Below, piece after piece: positions 7,898-21,408 of a stretch of 64,000 nucleotides of DNA. Position 1 is the stretch's first letter. Each line of letters begins with the position of its first letter. The notes under the pieces are model-generated. The model saw only the letters and a program-made list of their open reading frames with translations, was not told the origin of the DNA and made no database searches. This DNA is from Pseudomonas lini (GTDB lineage: Bacteria; Pseudomonadota; Gammaproteobacteria; Pseudomonadales; Pseudomonadaceae). A program made the translations under genes and the position numbers. Location of the stretch: positions 310,001 to 374,000 of the forward strand of contig NZ_OZ061318.1 of NCBI RefSeq assembly GCF_964063345.1, read 5' to 3'.

Positions 7898-10800
7898 AGC
7901 GGAGTTTCCAGAGCAGCATCGGTACGCACCCCACGCCAGTGGTTGAAGCGATGGCGCAGTTTGTCGAGATAGAGGTAAACCACCGGGGTGGTGTAAAGGG
8001 TCAGCACCTGGCTGAAGACCAGCCCGCCGATAATGGTCAGGCCCAGCGGCTGACGCATTTCCGCCCCTTCGGCACGACTCAGCAACAACGGCAAGGCGCC
8101 GAGGATTGCCGCCAGGGTGGTCATCAGAATCGGTCGCAGCCGCTGCAGACAAGCGCTGCGGATCGACTCCAGTGGCTCCAGGCCCTGGTGCCGCTCCAGT
8201 TGCAGCGCCAGATCGATCATCAGAATGGCGTTTTTCTTCACCACGCCGATCAGCAAGAACAGCCCGAGCAAGGAGATCAGGCTGAACTCGCCGCCCAGCA
8301 CATAGATCGACAGCAACGCCCCGACCCCGGCCGACGGCAAGGTCGAGAGAATAGTCAGCGGGTGGATATAGCTTTCATACAGCACGCCCAACACCAGATA
8401 CACCGCCACCAGCGCGCCGAGAATCATCCACGGCTGGCTCTTCTGAGCGGCGGCAAACGCATCGGCAGTACCGGCCATTTTCGCGATCACGTCTTCGGGC
8501 AAACCGACCTTGGCAATCGCCCGCTCAATGGCCGCCGAACCCTGCTCCACCGTCACGCCTTCGGCCATGTCGAAAGCGATGCTTTCCGACGCGAACTGGC
8601 CTTCGTGGCTGACCCGGTCGTCTTCCAGGCTGTTTTCATAGTGAGCGATGGTCGACAGTGGAATCCGCGCACCGTCCGCCGTGATTACCTTGACCTGATT
8701 CAGGGTGATCGGGTCCTGGGCGTATTTCGGGTTGACCTCCATCACCACCTGATATTGGTTGAGGCTGTCGTAGATCGTTGAAATCTGCCGCTGGCTATAG
8801 GCGTTGTTCAACACCGCGGTGACCATGTCCATGTCCACGCCCAGACGCTTGGCCTGATCGCGATCGACGATCAGGGTCACTTGCTGGGCGCCACGGCCTT
8901 CGCGCGCATCAATCGCCGTCAGTTCCGGCAGCGCCTTGAGCGCGGTGACGACTTTCGGATACCACTCGCGCAACGCGCCGAGATCGCCGCTTTGCAGGAT
9001 GTAGGAATATTGCGAGGAGGTCTGCTCGCGGCCACCGCCAAATTGCAGGTCCTGATCCGCCATCAGCATCAACTGCGCACCGGGCACCTTGGGCATTTCC
9101 TTGCGCAGGCGTTCGATGACTTTCTGCGCGGACAGGTTGCGTTCCTTGATCGGTTTCAGCCGCACCAGCATGAAGGCGTTGTTGGTACCGTTGCTGCCAC
9201 CGATGAACCCGGCGACGCTTTGCACCGCCTCATCCTTGAGCACGGCCCGGCGGAAGATTTCCATCTTCGGCTGCATCACGCTGAACGACAGGCCATCGTC
9301 GCCGCGCACGAAACCGATCAACTGGCCAGTATCCTGCTGGGGTAGAAATGTTTTAGGAACAACGACATACAGCGCAATATTCACGCCAATCGTCACGAAC
9401 AGACTGAGCAAGGTCAGCCGACGGTGGCGCAACACCCAGTCGAGGCTGCTGGCGTATTTGCCGACCATCCATTCGTTGGTCCGCTGGCTCCAGCGTTGCA
9501 GGCGGTTTTCCTGACCCAGCGTATGCGGCTTAAGCCAGCGCGCGCAGAGCATCGGCGTCAGCGTCAGCGACACCAGCAACGACACCACAATGGCCGCCGC
9601 CAAGGTGATGGAAAACTCGCGGAACAGGCTTTCGATGATCCCGCCCATGAACAGGATCGACAGGAACACCGCCACCAGCGAGACGTTCATCGACAGCAGC
9701 GTGAAACCGACTTCCTGGGCCCCGAGGTACGCGGCCTTCATCGGCGACACGCCCTTGTCGATGTGCCGGGAAATGTTCTCCAGCACCACGATGGCGTCGT
9801 CCACCACCAGCCCGGTGGCCAGGATCAGCGCCATCAGCGACAGGTTGTTCAGGGAGAACCCGTAGAGGTACATCACCGCAAACGTTCCCACCAGCGACAC
9901 CGGCACCGCCAGGGTGGGAATCAGCGAGGCACGGAAGTTACCGAGGAACAGAAACACCACCAGAATCACCAGTGCCACGGCAACCAGCAAAGTCATTTCA
10001 GCTTCGTGCAGGGTGGCCTTGATCACCGGTGAACGGTCCATCGCCAGGTTCAGCTTGACGCTGGCCGGCAGCACGGCCTGCAACGCCGGCAGCTGCGCCT
10101 TGATCTCGTTGACCGTCTCGATGATGTTGGCGCCGGCCTGGCGGTTGATCACCAGCAACACCGCCGCGTCGTCGTTGAAAAAGCCGCTGTTGTAACGGTC
10201 CTCGACGCCGTCGCTGACCTTAGCCACATCCTTCAGGCGCAGGGCCGCGCCGTCCGCGTAGTGAATGATCAGCGACTCGTAATCCTTGGCCTTTTCCAGT
10301 TGATCGTTGGCCTGCACCTGCCACAGCCGCTGGCCGTCTTCGACCGAGCCCTTGGGTCGGCGCACGTTGGCGTTGGCGATGGTGTTGCGCACATCATCCA
10401 GCGCCACGCCGTACTGGTTGAGCGCCTGGGGTTCGAGTTCGATGCGCACCGCCGGCAACGAGCTGCCACCGATCTGCACTTCACCCACGCCCTGCACCTG
10501 CGACAGGCTCTGGGACAAAATGGTCGAGGCCAAGTCATAGAGCTGGCCTTTTTCCAGCACATCCGAGGTCAGCGACAACACCATGATCGGCGCCTGAGAC
10601 GGATTGACCTTCTTGTAGGTCGGCATACTGCGCATGCCGCTCGGCAACAAATTGCGCGAGGCGTTGATCGCCGCCTGCACTTCCCGCGCCGCGCCGTTGA
10701 TGTCGCGGTCCAGGTCGAATTGCAGAATCACCCGCGTCGAGCCTTGGCTGGAACGGCTGCTCATGGTGTTGACCCCGGCGATGGCGCCAAAGGAACGCTC

Positions 10801-16869: not shown

Positions 16870-18453
16870 TTAGAGCACAGTCGCGCCAGGTTTTGCTTCA
16901 GCAATGGTCATTCCAGGGTATTCGCGCCGATCTCTGAACATGATGTAAAGCGGGTCCAGGCCCGTCGCTGGCGGGAAGACAACGACATAATCATCGAAAC
17001 GAATTGCGGCCATGTCACTGAAGGACTCCAACAAGGGCACAGATGAAGACCGGAGAAATCCCAGCCGATACTCGGGGGCTGGCGCCAGGGTCGAGGTGGT
17101 TTCAATGGTAGCTGGCGCACTCCAGCTCACGATCATCGGGGCCGATCCGTCAGCCGTGAAGCAGTAGGTCTTCAGTTGCTCATTCCAGACGGCGGCTCGC
17201 ACCCTCACTCTGGCCGATAATGCGCTGCCATTCGTCGGCGTAATCGCCACCTGTAGCAATGTCTTTATTTCCCTCAGGCCTCGGGACATAGTCCCGGGTG
17301 GAACGGCGTACGTGCCGCTGCTCATCCTGAAAGGAAGATCGACTTCGGCACCCGACGCGGCCAAACCCTGCCAATCCTGACCCTCGATTGGCAGCAACTC
17401 GAGCAGAGGAACGCTGAGCCCATACCTGCCCACTTCGGCCCGACTGAAAAAATCAAATTGCAGCACGGCGGCGTATTGACCTTGATGATCCTGGGTTCCC
17501 GAGGTGATCTGCCAGGTAAACTCCGCCACCGCCGAGCGTATGGCCTTTTGCAGCGCGACCCGATGGGTTTCCAATGGTTGCGCAAGGCCGCCATCGAGGA
17601 AAATACCCGGTCGCGCATTGGCAAAGGCAAGCGGTGCAAAAAGCAGTTCGGACACCTGAGTCGGCCCTGTTCCCTGCTGATAACGCTGATCAACGAGTTG
17701 TGTTTGCGCGACCACCAGCAGCGCCTCGGCATCCATTTGAAAGCGATGGAGACGTTGATTGATCTCATTCAGCTTCGCCAGATAGCGGTCGTAAGTGACG
17801 TTGATCTGGTGGGCGATACTTTGCCACTGCGCGTGCTCGGATCGGGCGTAGGACAGGTCGCGCCGGGCGCTGTCTCGCTTGAATGTGAGGCTCATTTTCC
17901 AGTATTCGTACCGGCGAGCTGCCAGGCGCGCTTCAAACTCGGCGACCTCCAGAGCACGGATGTCTGCCTCGCGCCCACGGATGTCCACTTGGGCGCTCTG
18001 TCGCTGACTCAGGTGTTTGATCCGTTGTTCGAAAAGAATGAGTTCCGCTTCTGCCGCCCGCTCCGAGGCCAGCAGATCGACGGCGGTTTTTTGTACGTCC
18101 GCCAGATTATGGGCAATGCGCTGCTGCGTCATCTGCGCCAGGGTCAACGGCGCTCCCGGTCTTGCAACAACCGGACGTGGAACAGGAGCCCCCTCCCCCT
18201 TGAATGCTGCACGGTTCTGTTTGTGGTACCAGTCTTTGACGTAGTACACGACCGAGCCCGATAAATAGGTGTTCGTATCGTCCTCCGGCGGATAAAACAG
18301 CAGGTCTGCGCCTTTCGGGTGACCCACGATGCGATCGAAATGATTGATCAGTCGGTCGTGGTCCTGTTTCGGCAGATCGACGGCCCAGATTCTGTCGACC
18401 AGTGCCTGGAATTCGGGCTCGGTGTAATCCTTGAGTGTTGTTTTAAGTTCCAT
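16870..18453 (-). CDS. Im9-like immunity domain fused to an S-pyocin body without a cytotoxic domain
   Basis: 527 residues. Residues 1-85 are a colicin E/S-pyocin DNase immunity domain (MELKTTLKDYTEPEF, GADLLFYPPEDD; compare Im9 and its FYP/YYP toxin-binding helix). A short Pro-rich linker (86-104) leads to a long charged helical region (about 105-260), then a Pyocin_S-type translocation domain (about 265-515) ending PLYIMFRDRREYPGM. That motif normally joins the translocation domain to the nuclease; here the protein stops 13 residues later. Start chosen at 18453 because AAGGAA lies 9 bases upstream. It is 107 bases after the true immunity gene, separated by a hairpin. No frameshift remnant of a nuclease is visible downstream. 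Function unknown: a decoy or immunity carrier, or a decayed pyocin. Confidence 0.8.
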   Translation of the reverse strand: MELKTTLKDYTEPEFQALVDRIWAVDLPKQDHDRLINHFDRIVGHPKGADLLFYPPEDDTNTYLSGSVVYYVKDWYHKQNRAAFKGEGAPVPRPVVARPGAPLTLAQMTQQRIAHNLADVQKTAVDLLASERAAEAELILFEQRIKHLSQRQSAQVDIRGREADIRALEVAEFEARLAARRYEYWKMSLTFKRDSARRDLSYARSEHAQWQSIAHQINVTYDRYLAKLNEINQRLHRFQMDAEALLVVAQTQLVDQRYQQGTGPTQVSELLFAPLAFANARPGIFLDGGLAQPLETHRVALQKAIRSAVAEFTWQITSGTQDHQGQYAAVLQFDFFSRAEVGRYGLSVPLLELLPIEGQDWQGLAASGAEVDLPFRMSSGTYAVPPGTMSRGLREIKTLLQVAITPTNGSALSARVRVRAAVWNEQLKTYCFTADGSAPMIVSWSAPATIETTSTLAPAPEYRLGFLRSSSVPLLESFSDMAAIRFDDYVVVFPPATGLDPLYIMFRDRREYPGMTIAEAKPGATVL

Positions 18454-18499: not shown

Positions 18500-18529
18500 G
18501 CATCTGCTCATGTTGTGATGAGCAGATGC
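18500..18529 (-). terminator. Perfect 12-bp hairpin between immunity gene and fusion gene
   Basis: Arms GCATCTGCTCAT (18500-18511) and its exact inverse (18518-18529), six-base loop. Only a weak T-rich tail follows on the minus strand, so it may be a terminator, an attenuator or an mRNA stabiliser splitting toxin-immunity from the fusion gene. Confidence 0.55.
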
Positions 18530-18560: not shown

Positions 18561-18836
18561 TTATTCTGGCTTGAAGCCGGGCTTTTTATTTAGTGCGCGC
18601 CATTCTTTGACTTCTTTCAGGATGCCCTCTGGACTGTCCTCTTGGCCTTCCTTTGGGTAGAAGATGACGTCCGAACGACCTGGATGCTCAGTAATACGTT
18701 CAAAATGCGTGAGAAGTCGATCCAGATATACCTCCAGTTCCCTACCCTCCAAGCCACTAGGATAATGGTCAAACCCTTTCAAAAAATTCAGAAAGTCTAT
18801 TTCAGTGTAATCCTCTAATTTCTCTTTAAAGATCAT
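18561..18836 (-). CDS. DNase-bacteriocin immunity protein (Im2/Im9 family)
   Basis: 91 residues, close to Im9 (86). Diagnostic features: KLEDYTEIDFLNFL at the start, HFERITEHPGRSDVIFYPKEGQEDSPEGI with the FYP triplet of helix III, and C-terminal VKEWRALNKKPGFK. It would bind the exosite of the HNH DNase and protect the producer. Start at 18836 follows AAGGAAAG by 11 bases on the minus strand; the gene begins 11 bases inside the 3' end of the toxin gene, so the two are translationally coupled. Pairing with the adjacent toxin is therefore near certain. Confidence 0.95.
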   Translation of the reverse strand: MIFKEKLEDYTEIDFLNFLKGFDHYPSGLEGRELEVYLDRLLTHFERITEHPGRSDVIFYPKEGQEDSPEGILKEVKEWRALNKKPGFKPE

Positions 18837-21408
18837 GATTTTTTCTTTCCTTATGTAGCTCAATATGTCGCCGTGGCGTCATTACAGAAATATTATCCAT
18901 CCCATAAACTTCGCCCCCACTTGAAACTTCAACATCATGATGAAGTTCGAACGTTTTACGTCCGCCGCTTTGGTCAGCTAACGTAGGGTACGGAGAGAGC
19001 CCTGCACGCATTCTGTTCAAATTGCGAGCACTAAACTGCTGACTCAATTCCACATCCGCCGCAACAGCCTTCCAAAACGCCCGCCTGAACCCATGAAAAT
19101 TACGAAACTCCATCCACCGCAACTGATCCGCAATCTGCTCGGGAATCGGCGCACCGTCCATTCGTGCAGCCTCGCCTAGCCATACGCCTGATACCTGCTC
19201 CCCAAACCCCATCGCCATACCTGGATCATCTCGCCGATCCAGAAACAGGACATCGGAGGACGGCAATTCCATATCCGCCGGGTACCCAGGAATACTGGCA
19301 CCGATCTGCCCTTCGTCAACAGCCGGAAACGTCTCGTTTTGCGGTAGGACCGGGATGACGGGTGCGCCGGGATAAACGGCTGGAATCGACGGTGTAACCG
19401 GTGAGGTTGTAGGACCGAGGTGTTCGATACCTGGCGGAACCAGAGGGGTCCAGGTACCAACGCCGATCGGACGAGTCGGCCAGGGCAGGACCGCAAGGGT
19501 AATCCCTGGCCGCCCCTGGGTGCTTTGCGGCGTGGTGATGCTGATTTTGTCGAGGTTGAAAGGATTGGCGCCGAGCTCTGCTCGCTCCTGATAGCGCAAT
19601 TCGAACTCGCGTCGCTCACCGGCCCAGGTGCTTTTCGGCGCGTATGGCGCGAAGCCCTGTTCGATGCGCTTTTTGTTGACCTCATCGAATTGGGCGATGA
19701 GCGCCGGATGCTCGCCGAGCGTTCGCCACAACGCTTCGTCGAAAGCACCGAACGAGTTGATTTCCCGGCCTCGAAACTGGTCACCAATCTGTACCGGGAT
19801 GGCTGCGCCCTGAGGCTGGCTCGCGGATTTCCACCAGTCATTCGCCGCCGGTTTACCGATCCCCGTGACGACGCCCGAGCCTATGGGTGGCAGATTGAAG
19901 GTCAAGTAAATCGGCGGCTGGCCAGGCACGCACACTATGCAATCGCTGAAACGCAGATCGACACCCGTCGCAATGGCCTCGACCTGTGGTGTCAACACGC
20001 TCAGCCCGGGCTGACTGGCAGTGGCAACCTGAGTGGTGTCCGGGGTGAATTGCAGATGCCTGGTCGGTGACCCGGGAATCTCGGCGCTATAGAAGCCGGT
20101 CAACGGGTCAAGCACTGCGTTGACAACCGGCACATGGGCACCTATCTCCCCACCCGTGCTGACAACGATGATCGCTGTGCCTTCCGGCACGGTCTCAGGT
20201 TTGAGCCGGTACGCGACCTCCACTGAACCGCCCGCATCGGCGATCGATTGCAACGCTTGACGGTCAGCAAGGCCCAACGCTTGCGCCGGCACCCCGACAG
20301 CCTGGAACAAACGCCGACGTTGCTCGGCAGTCAACTCGCCATTGCCCAAGGTTGGCGAGTACACCATTGCGGTAACGAACACCGGCCCTGTTTTTGCTGC
20401 AATGCGTGCGAAATCGATGAGGGTGTTGACGGCAGACTGGACAGCCGCCTCAAGCGCTGCCGCCGCTTGCCGCGCCACAAATACGCCGTTACGCGTCAAA
20501 ACCATCCCGCCAGCGGCAACGGAGGTAACAGGAGCCGTCAGCGTGTGAGCCTGCCTGACCCGTTCAACCCGTACATCCTCATCAGTCTGCTGCTTGAAGC
20601 GAACGCGTGCTTCACGCTGCTCGGCGTATTGACGTTGGGCCTCCCGGACGGCTTCCCTTTCGCGCCAGACCACGGTCTGGTCAGCGTGATACTTGGCCAG
20701 CGCAATGGATTTGCCCGTCAGTGCATTGATTTGCGATGTCAGCAACCGCGCTTCATGGGCCGCGTTGTAGGCGTTTTCCCAAATTTGGTGGCCGTCATTG
20801 AGCGCCTGACCGAACGCCCCCAATCGCGTCAGGTAATCATTCGAAGTGCGGGTAAATGGATCATGCCCATCGAAGGACCGGGCAACCGCGTTTTTTGCAT
20901 TGAGCTCAATGGTCTTGCGGGCGAGCAGCCCGTCGATTTCGTTTTTTTCTTTGGTGATGGTGTAGAGCTGCCAACGCTCGGTCTGGTTGGCGTCAGGGGG
21001 CCTCTTTGTTGCGAGAATTTCCTGTTCAAGCGCTGAGGTGAGTTGTCTGGACTTCTCGGCAAAACGGCGATCCACTTCGGATCGGATGACGTCGCGCCGC
21101 TGCGTCAGGCCTGCCAGAAATTGCAAAAGCGCTTGATGCCGCGCCTGTTCCTGAGCTTGCGCAGCGGCCGCTTGTGCTCGCGCCGCTTCGGCTTGAGCGT
21201 TGGCCGCAGCCTGAGCCCGCTCTTTTTCCTGCGCCTGACGATGCGCTGCCATGGCCCGTTTTCGGGCCCTTTTTCTCTTCTTGCTGCTCGTACCACCGAA
21301 TCCGCCTGATACCCCTCCGCCGACGCTAAAAACGCTGCCCGAGGATGAGGGTCCCGGCCTGATGACAACTTCCCCTGTCGTTCCATCGTTCAATATGTTT
21401 TGTGCCAT
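18826..21408 (-). CDS. S-type pyocin/colicin-like bacteriocin with an inactive and an active HNH DNase module
   Basis: 860 residues; typical S1/S2/AP41 pyocins are about 620-780. Layout: Gly/Ser-rich N terminus with a basic stretch (KKRKRARKR, about 43-51); Ala/Gln/Glu-rich helical region (55-290); Pyocin_S translocation domain (about 290-510); a degenerate colicin-DNase-like module (about 512-632); a Pro-rich linker (about 635-720); an intact DNase module (about 731-858) with ELHH, GMDNIS and RRHIELH, the HNH/ββα-metal motif of colicin E9 and pyocin S2. In the first module the matching positions read ELRY, NLDKIS and PQSTQ, so every catalytic His/Asn is lost. Start 21408 has AAGGAG 8 bases upstream. 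Secreted by lysis; kills related Pseudomonas by cutting DNA. Confidence 0.93.
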   Translation of the reverse strand: MAQNILNDGTTGEVVIRPGPSSSGSVFSVGGGVSGGFGGTSSKKRKRARKRAMAAHRQAQEKERAQAAANAQAEAARAQAAAAQAQEQARHQALLQFLAGLTQRRDVIRSEVDRRFAEKSRQLTSALEQEILATKRPPDANQTERWQLYTITKEKNEIDGLLARKTIELNAKNAVARSFDGHDPFTRTSNDYLTRLGAFGQALNDGHQIWENAYNAAHEARLLTSQINALTGKSIALAKYHADQTVVWREREAVREAQRQYAEQREARVRFKQQTDEDVRVERVRQAHTLTAPVTSVAAGGMVLTRNGVFVARQAAAALEAAVQSAVNTLIDFARIAAKTGPVFVTAMVYSPTLGNGELTAEQRRRLFQAVGVPAQALGLADRQALQSIADAGGSVEVAYRLKPETVPEGTAIIVVSTGGEIGAHVPVVNAVLDPLTGFYSAEIPGSPTRHLQFTPDTTQVATASQPGLSVLTPQVEAIATGVDLRFSDCIVCVPGQPPIYLTFNLPPIGSGVVTGIGKPAANDWWKSASQPQGAAIPVQIGDQFRGREINSFGAFDEALWRTLGEHPALIAQFDEVNKKRIEQGFAPYAPKSTWAGERREFELRYQERAELGANPFNLDKISITTPQSTQGRPGITLAVLPWPTRPIGVGTWTPLVPPGIEHLGPTTSPVTPSIPAVYPGAPVIPVLPQNETFPAVDEGQIGASIPGYPADMELPSSDVLFLDRRDDPGMAMGFGEQVSGVWLGEAARMDGAPIPEQIADQLRWMEFRNFHGFRRAFWKAVAADVELSQQFSARNLNRMRAGLSPYPTLADQSGGRKTFELHHDVEVSSGGEVYGMDNISVMTPRRHIELHKERKNHDL

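What the first reader, a model, noticed from the sequence alone, without database searches (positions are those of the whole stretch)
16870..18453. Immunity protein fused to a toxin-less S-pyocin body
The protein starts with an Im9-type immunity domain (residues 1-85) and continues into a full helical plus Pyocin_S translocation region, ending 13 residues after the motif (FRDRREYPGM) that normally leads into the DNase. There is no TonB-box-like or receptor N terminus and no nuclease. It keeps an intact ribosome site and a 527-codon frame, which argues against simple decay. It might be an immunity carrier, a decoy occupying partner or receptor sites, or protection against incoming pyocins with related DNase domains. 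Such an architecture would be a distinct type of bacteriocin-related protein; I cannot tell from memory how widespread it is.
Basis: partly seen in the sequence, partly recalled or inferred. Interest (0 to 1): 0.82.

Follow-up and report, generated by a model that had tools for sequence, protein, structure and literature searches.

The report
Probable docking partner of a bacteriocin
A protein without a toxic part, next to a bacterial killer protein, looks like its dedicated partner: it probably clips onto a dead copy of a DNA-cutting domain inside the killer, so that two proteins together would make one antibacterial weapon.

Summary
It is not decay: the fusion is full-length in 39 of 398 Pseudomonas genomes (identity down to 31%), with dN/dS 0.15-0.34 in 12 pairs. 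It lies just downstream of one kind of toxin, which carries a catalytically dead DNase between its Pyocin_S domain and its warhead. A separate toxin search found that toxin in 35 genomes; all 35 have the fusion. Warhead type changed at least 9 times. The dead DNase lost its active site (HNH in 0 of 43) but kept a conserved immunity-binding surface. The salt bridge of known DNase-Im complexes (Arg54-Glu30) is reversed: acid in the dead DNase faces base in the fusion in 32 of 42 pairs. The toxin's own translocation motif is shortened (canonical in 2 of 44); the fusion's is mostly intact (40 of 46). Best reading: a two-component bacteriocin in which the fusion docks on the dead DNase and supplies translocation or receptor functions. 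Docking is inferred, not shown. The dead-DNase toxin is in print; I found no text on the partner.

The parts
16870..18453 (-). Fusion protein gene (527 aa): Im-type domain + long helices + Pyocin_S/T-domain
18190..18453 (-). Im9-type domain of the fusion (residues 1-88); Lys29 (codon 18367-18369) lies where Im9 has Glu30, by the helix II register
   Evidence: PF01320 57.6 bits; PDB Im hits
17677..18141 (-). Long helices of the fusion (residues 105-259), possible receptor-binding part
   Evidence: AlphaFold2 model; function inferred
16924..17664 (-). T-domain / inner-membrane-translocation region of the fusion (residues 264-510; PF06958 at 364-505)
16945..16992 (-). Canonical DPY motif D-X4-FP-X8-Y of the fusion (residues 488-503)
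   Evidence: motif from PMC5536347
18500..18529 (-). Hairpin between the immunity gene and the fusion; the searched pattern occurs once in this genome
18561..18836 (-). Standalone immunity gene, presumably for the live DNase warhead (ATG at 18836, overlaps the toxin end)
   Evidence: PF01320 108 bits; sequence
18826..21408 (-). Partner toxin (860 aa from the likely start): glycine-rich N terminus, helical region, Pyocin_S, dead DNase, linker, live DNase
19894..20268 (-). Pyocin_S domain of the toxin, with shortened DPY motif (19906-19944, D-X4-VP-X5-Y)
19444..19878 (-). Dead DNase domain of the toxin, proposed docking site; Asp (19738-19740) at E9 position 54; FELRY (19591-19605) where live DNases have FELHH
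   Evidence: PDB hits to colicin E9 and others
19606..19686 (-). Immunity-protein exosite of the dead DNase (E9 positions 72-98)
18829..19263 (-). Live HNH DNase warhead of the toxin
   Evidence: PF21431; PDB pyocin S2 and E9; HNH intact

Best explanation
The locus encodes a two-component S-type nuclease bacteriocin. The toxin carries, between its translocation domain and its exchangeable warhead, a DNase domain that has lost catalysis and is kept as a docking platform. The fusion's N-terminal Im domain, once an immunity protein, binds that platform through a re-specified DNase:Im interface. The fusion thereby attaches a second helical part and an intact translocation (IMT/DPY) domain to the toxin, whose own is eroded. 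The warhead keeps its own ordinary immunity protein. Shown here by sequence: architecture, co-occurrence, dead active site, conserved exosite, reversed salt-bridge charges, motif asymmetry, warhead swapping. Inferred: physical docking (about 0.8) and supply of translocation or receptor function in trans (about 0.45).
For: A toxin search made without the fusion found the toxin, complete through the dead DNase, in 35 of 398 genomes; all 35 have the fusion. Of 39 genomes with a full-length fusion, 35 have that toxin and 4 a truncated or rearranged one. Same strand; fusion 349-2091 nt after the toxin stop in 42 of 43 measured loci (L094, a cut toxin, reads -7). HNH pattern in 0 of 43 dead DNases and 19 of 19 scored warheads. 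Exosite entropy in the same 19 loci: dead DNase 0.26 bits vs 0.75 elsewhere (p 0.002), warheads 1.33 vs 0.80 (p 0.03). Im helix II entropy in those loci: fusions 0.52, cassette Ims 1.44 (all loci: 1.06 and 1.52). Arg54 in 19 of 19 warheads and acidic position 30 in 29 of 31 cassette Ims, against acidic 54 in 35 of 43 dead DNases and Lys/Arg/Gln at 30 in 44 of 46 scored fusions; acid faces base in 32 of 42 pairs; the one dead DNase with Lys54 (L062) faces Glu30. Canonical DPY: toxins 2 of 44, fusions 40 of 46. Warhead type changed at least 9 times on the toxin tree.
Against: No complex was modelled or measured. Within the family, mutual information does not single out the 54-30 pair (rank 899 of 8190), so the swap may be one or a few events. 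The register of Im position 30 rests on where a one-residue gap is placed. Eight of 43 dead DNases are not acidic at 54 (G4, N2, H1, K1), and one fusion besides L062's has Glu30 (L097, toxin truncated). The toxin keeps the DPY tyrosine, the only one of three DPY-network residues whose mutation abolished colicin E9 killing. In G146 (L113) the toxin's first motif is canonical and a second one near-canonical, yet a fusion-like gene follows, whose Im hotspot is degraded. Two genomes (G128, G215) have fusion pieces with no toxin seen in the fetched region. The toxin model is poor (pLDDT 63.6). No SOS or P-box consensus upstream in most loci.
Confidence: 0.7

Rival explanations
1. The fusion docks on the toxin (as in the best reading) but works only outside the target cell: its helical part binds a second surface receptor and adds avidity, then it is shed like an ordinary Im protein. 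This rival shares the docking step, so its odds overlap with the best reading.
For: Same docking evidence. The helical part has clearly the highest dN/dS of three parts in 9 of 12 pairs (one tie, one lower, one with the T-domain undefined). Im proteins are normally released at import (PMC9040868 section 8; PMC5536347 passages).
Against: Would not explain why the fusion keeps a canonical DPY motif in 40 of 46 while the toxin's is shortened.
Confidence: 0.25
2. The fusion is a true immunity protein (carrier or decoy) protecting against DNase bacteriocins.
For: It is a PF01320 protein with the helix III hotspot Asp51 in 43 of 43 paired loci.
Against: Position 30 is basic or Gln in 44 of 46 scored fusions, facing Arg54 in 19 of 19 live DNases. 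21 of 43 toxins on the tree carry a warhead that is not the HNH type, and the fusion is there all the same (loci chosen by the fusion). All 19 scored DNase-warhead loci have a separate cassette Im.
Confidence: 0.08
3. The fusion is a relic of a second toxin that lost its warhead after an in-frame join with an immunity gene; no present function.
For: Four fusions (L085, L086, L060, L091) keep a DNase-like tail that is dead and truncated, so the ancestor was probably a full toxin. Some copies are broken (L077, L087).
Against: dN/dS 0.15-0.34 overall in 12 chosen pairs; full-length at identities from 91 to 31% and paired with the toxin. The origin may be right; lack of function is unlikely.
Confidence: 0.04
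4. The fusion acts inside the producer as a chaperone or cap: it binds the dead DNase to keep the toxin folded or to control release, and is not part of the weapon. It too shares the docking step.
For: Docking evidence is equally compatible; the gene follows the toxin on the same strand.
Against: Would not call for a conserved T-domain with a translocation motif.
Confidence: 0.12

Closest known systems
S-type nuclease pyocins and colicins (pyocin S2, AP41, colicin E9) with their Im proteins
   Same: Toxin with PF06958 and a C-terminal HNH DNase; standalone Im gene overlapping the toxin end; Im fold and T-domain of the fusion match these structures.
   Different: Normally one toxin chain plus one small Im. 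Here a second large chain with an Im domain and a T-domain accompanies the toxin, and the toxin has an extra dead DNase.
Pseudomonas nuclease bacteriocins with dual pyocin_S and an additional non-functional DNase (Ghequire et al. as cited in Sharp et al. 2017, PMC5536347)
   Same: Very likely the toxin described here: Sharp et al. [quoted passage not shown] a further HNH or non-HNH DNase follows (section 8 read in two parts).
   Different: The passage gives no function for the dead DNase and mentions no partner protein. The cited 2014 review was not read.
Proteins with both PF06958 and PF01320 tallied in Atanaskovic et al. 2022 (PMC9040868, Fig. 1D legend)
   Same: The legend lists Colicin_Pyocin among Pfam domains that occur with the IMT domain in one protein, so the architecture had been counted.
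   Different: No analysis of that architecture in what I saw (sections 5 and 8, and passages from a term search).
PmdH-type hybrid bacteriocin with a presumed inactive ColM domain before pyocin_S and a carocin D-type warhead (PMC5821083)
   Same: A degenerate toxin domain kept inside a bacteriocin upstream of a live warhead (passages).
   Different: Different dead domain; no Im-fused partner in those passages.

Membership tests
Colicin/pyocin Im proteins (PF01320) | PF01320 four-helix fold | tested here: met
   57.6 bits over cut-off 21.2; Foldseek and VIA matches to Im7/Im9
Colicin/pyocin Im proteins (PF01320) | Acidic residue at position 30 for the salt bridge to DNase Arg54 | tested here: not met
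   Lys in the window; Lys38, Gln4, Arg2, Glu2 of 46 scored fusions
Colicin/pyocin Im proteins (PF01320) | Inhibits the nuclease of the adjacent toxin and protects cells | not testable with these tools
   needs a binding or protection assay
Nuclease bacteriocins (fusion as a toxin) | C-terminal catalytic nuclease domain | tested here: not met
   none in the window fusion; the tails of 4 relatives are dead and truncated
Nuclease bacteriocin T-domain proteins (PF06958, DPY motif) | PF06958 and D-X4-FP-X8-Y | tested here: met
   56.0 bits; canonical in 40 of 46 fusions, window included
Nuclease bacteriocins (partner toxin) | PF06958 plus C-terminal nuclease with intact motif plus immunity gene | tested here: met
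   window; HNH intact in 19 of 19 scored DNase warheads
Nuclease bacteriocins (partner toxin) | Canonical DPY motif in the toxin chain | tested here: not met
   2 of 44 toxins; the window toxin has D-X4-VP-X5-Y
Nuclease bacteriocins (partner toxin) | Kills related bacteria | not testable with these tools
   no assay
DNase:Im pair (dead DNase with fusion Im) | Exosite scaffold NxxxPhixxGxAP and Im helix III Asp51 | tested here: met
   relaxed motif (V allowed at Phi, P for A) in 42 of 43, strict in 20 of 43; Asp51 in 43 of 43
DNase:Im pair (dead DNase with fusion Im) | Tight physical binding | not testable with these tools
   no complex prediction or assay available

The most novel reading that the evidence does not exclude
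A toxin:antidote pair has been turned into a permanent joint: a killed DNase and its former immunity protein hold together a two-chain bacteriocin in which one chain carries the interchangeable warhead and the other carries the working translocation machinery. The high-affinity DNase:Im interaction is reused as a structural coupling, with reversed charges keeping it apart from the live DNase:Im pairs of the same locus.
Probability: 0.5. Interest if true: 0.88.

Novelty: new variant of a known kind. Interest (0 to 1): 0.78.

Why it matters
Colicin-type bacteriocins are understood as one toxin chain plus a disposable immunity protein. A conserved second large chain that docks by a repurposed toxin:antidote interface would show that these weapons can be multi-subunit. 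It would give a natural case of a re-specified DNase:Im interface, one of the best-studied protein-protein interactions. It would also let the inner-membrane translocation domain be tested in trans, and would explain the extra non-functional DNase noted in print in 2017.

Tried and rejected
Decay or assembly error: rejected by conservation (39 of 398 genomes) and dN/dS. Immunity to DNases: disfavoured. Fusion docking on its own DNase tail: in the four fusions with a tail the residue at position 54 is basic (K or R, read by eye from the alignment), which does not suit a basic position 30. Within-family covariation: the 54-30 pair ranks 899 of 8190, no support. Search outside the genus: 390 genomes of the order and 369 of the class at E 1e-15; full-length fusions only in Pseudomonas; a fusion as distant as that of L113 would be missed. 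Plasmids: 0 of 229 matched records cover 80% of the fusion. Phages: no match for the toxin; the fusion was not searched there. Promoter motifs: CTG-N10-CAG in 5 of 43 and ATTGnn(n)GT in 3 of 43 toxin upstream regions, no positive control run, so no claim on regulation. Toxin AlphaFold2 model (pLDDT 63.6) too weak for use. Other warhead type: no Pfam match over the warhead in 5 toxins at E 0.1; a carocin D-like identity is only a guess from passages of PMC5909648 and PMC5821083. NCBIfam gave only below-cut-off matches; PHROGs gave one family of unknown function over the Im domain. Literature: 8 of 10 searches used (in 10 and 80 the tool read Pyocin_S as 'pyocins'); no listed title or abstract was on an Im-fused partner or a two-component nuclease bacteriocin. 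The library lacks most subscription papers, the 2014 review included.

Rows and limits: searches scored at most three candidates per genome. 'Full-length' and 'complete' are my reading of the match ranges. The sequence counts use 49 loci (window, L063-L102, L044, L046, L049, L053, L055, L059, L060, L062), chosen because they matched the fusion: 46 with a fusion frame, 44 with a toxin frame carrying the dead DNase. L094's dead DNase is too short for the 43. L044 is left out of position-30 counts (Im frame broken); L062's short fusion is counted there but not among the 46. L044's HNH warhead is not among the 19 (toxin in two frames).

Full report

NEIGHBOURS. Upstream on the same strand lie a toxin of 860 aa from its likely start (21408 to 18826) and a standalone Im gene that overlaps its end (18836 to 18561). 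The toxin holds two DNase-like domains, 30% identical over 135 aligned columns. The C-terminal one matches pyocin S2 and colicin E9 DNases. The first matches the same structures more weakly, E 2e-22 to 1e-16, and has FELRY where live DNases have FELHH.

CONSERVATION. In 398 Pseudomonas genomes the fusion is full-length in 39 by my reading of the rows, own genome included, at 91 down to 31% identity; three more (G128, G215, G159) have parts. The call's own tally of 109 genomes includes ordinary Im proteins and S-pyocins that match one part only. Of the 39, G208 (L077) and G112 (L087) are broken in frame. dN/dS over the whole gene is 0.15-0.34 in the 12 pairs that I chose. Searches of 390 genomes of the order and 369 of the class found full-length fusions only in Pseudomonas. 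Named hosts include P. brassicacearum, P. fluorescens, P. migulae, P. viridiflava, P. frederiksbergensis and P. helleri.

PARTNER. The toxin without its warhead, searched on its own in the same 398 genomes, is complete through the dead DNase in 35; all 35 have the fusion. In some of these the warhead is frame-broken (L065, L077, L090). The other four fusion genomes (G112, G245, G311, G155) have a truncated or rearranged toxin at the locus. Fisher's exact test on 35, 0, 4, 359 gives p 4e-46, which ignores kinship. A more distant toxin in G146 (L113, E 1.5e-47) is followed by a fusion-like gene found only with my own profiles, with a degraded Im hotspot. G367 (L115) and G159 (L123) have remnants of both genes. 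G128 (L100) and G215 (L101) have fusion pieces and no toxin in the fetched region. Of the weaker toxin hits I fetched eight more (L114, L116-L122): each shows one DNase domain and no second, dead one; the rest were not looked at.

WARHEADS SWAP. The 43 toxins on the tree were chosen for having the dead DNase and a fusion nearby, so their presence is no result; the independent test is the one above. Among them 20 have an HNH warhead, 21 another type and 2 are cut short, and warhead type changed at least 9 times (quick tree, 29 of 40 inner branches well supported). So in about half the loci the fusion's Im cannot be the immunity protein of the warhead. Orphan DNase or Im cassettes lie between toxin and fusion in some (L068, L073, L049).

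DEAD DNASE KEPT AS A SURFACE. The pattern HHX14NX8HX3H (N or D allowed) is in 0 of 43 dead DNases and 19 of 19 scored warheads. In the same 19 loci the immunity exosite (E9 72-98) is more conserved than the rest in the dead DNase (0.26 vs 0.75 bits, p 0.002) and less in the warheads (1.33 vs 0.80, p 0.03); over all 43 dead DNases it is 0.81 vs 1.30. On the Im side helix II has 0.52 bits in fusions and 1.44 in cassette Ims at those loci (1.06 and 1.52 over all), while helices I and IV vary more in fusions. In known pairs the exosite and helix II are the diversifying specificity parts (PMC4548480, passages). The exosite scaffold NxxxPhixxGxAP described there is present in relaxed form in 42 of 43 dead DNases, strict in 20.

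REVERSED SALT BRIDGE. PMC4548480 (passages) calls Im Glu30 strictly conserved, pairing with colicin E2 Arg501 (E9 Arg54 by my count) in all DNase-Im structures. Here Arg54 is kept in 19 of 19 scored warheads and position 30 is acidic in 29 of 31 cassette Ims. In the dead DNases position 54 is D25, E10, G4, N2, H1, K1 of 43; in scored fusions position 30 is K38, Q4, R2, E2 of 46. Acid faces base in 32 of 42 scored pairs. The only Lys54 (L062) faces Glu30; the other Glu30 (L097) has a truncated toxin. Caveats: the register of position 30 is anchored on the following helix, which puts the gap in loop 1; the loci are related; mutual information within the family ranks the pair 899 of 8190.

TRANSLOCATION MOTIF. 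Sharp et al. 2017 (PMC5536347, section 9) report the DPY motif D-X4-FP-X8-Y in all nuclease bacteriocins examined (3094 sequences) and that mutation of Tyr285, not of Asp270 or Arg185, abolished colicin E9 killing. It is canonical in 40 of 46 fusions (4 of the other 6 near-canonical) and 2 of 44 partner toxins; 39 of 44 toxins have D-X4-(V/I/L)P-X5-Y. Four of five other Pyocin_S proteins of this genome are canonical. The IMT domain is needed to bring pyocin G across the inner membrane (PMC9040868, abstract and sections 5 and 8). This suggests that the fusion supplies the translocation domain. Against this, the toxins keep the tyrosine, and the toxins of L091, L062 and (first motif) L113 are canonical although a fusion follows (L062's a short form).

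ORIGIN. Four fusions keep a dead and truncated DNase tail, so the fusion probably came from a full DNase bacteriocin whose N terminus was replaced by an immunity gene. This is inference.

PRIOR WORK. Section 8 of PMC5536347 says that Ghequire et al. reported tandem pyocin_s toxins in 10 isolates and that the additional DNase lacks a functional HNH motif. The Fig. 1 legend of PMC9040868 lists Colicin_Pyocin among domains found with the IMT domain. I saw no text on a conserved Im-fused partner or on docking in the listings or in the passages read, within a library that lacks most subscription papers.

VERDICT. Worth attention: most likely the conserved second subunit of a known but unexplained kind of S-type bacteriocin, held by a repurposed DNase:Im interface. 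Docking is well supported by sequence but not shown; its purpose is less certain.

Noticed in passing
window 18500-18529: A hairpin with a 12-bp stem lies between the immunity gene and the fusion. Stems of 10 bp or more occur in 23 of 45 loci, with differing stem sequences (largest stem in 20 shuffles per locus: 11); the pattern occurs once in this genome. Possibly an RNA processing or expression-ratio element.
   Followed up: partly
L113:4024-7101 (+) and 7929-9947 (+): A 1025-aa toxin with two Pyocin_S-like stretches in one chain, a dead DNase between them and a live DNase at the end, followed by an orphan DNase-Im cassette and a fusion-like gene with a DNase-like tail.
   Followed up: partly
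L048, L057, L102 and other toxins, C-terminal ~110 aa: A second warhead class (DIDHIPSR ... HQKFSETYGGRN and variants) without a Pfam match; possibly the carocin D type.
   Followed up: no
L068:6159-6704, L073:6133-6705, L049:6953-7542, L100:5682-6984: Orphan DNase and immunity cassettes between or beside toxin and fusion genes, some broken, as in polymorphic toxin loci.
   Followed up: no
own genome, L005-L007: Three further Pyocin_S proteins (open frames of 445, 369 and 325 aa) with a canonical DPY motif; their C termini were not examined.
   Followed up: no
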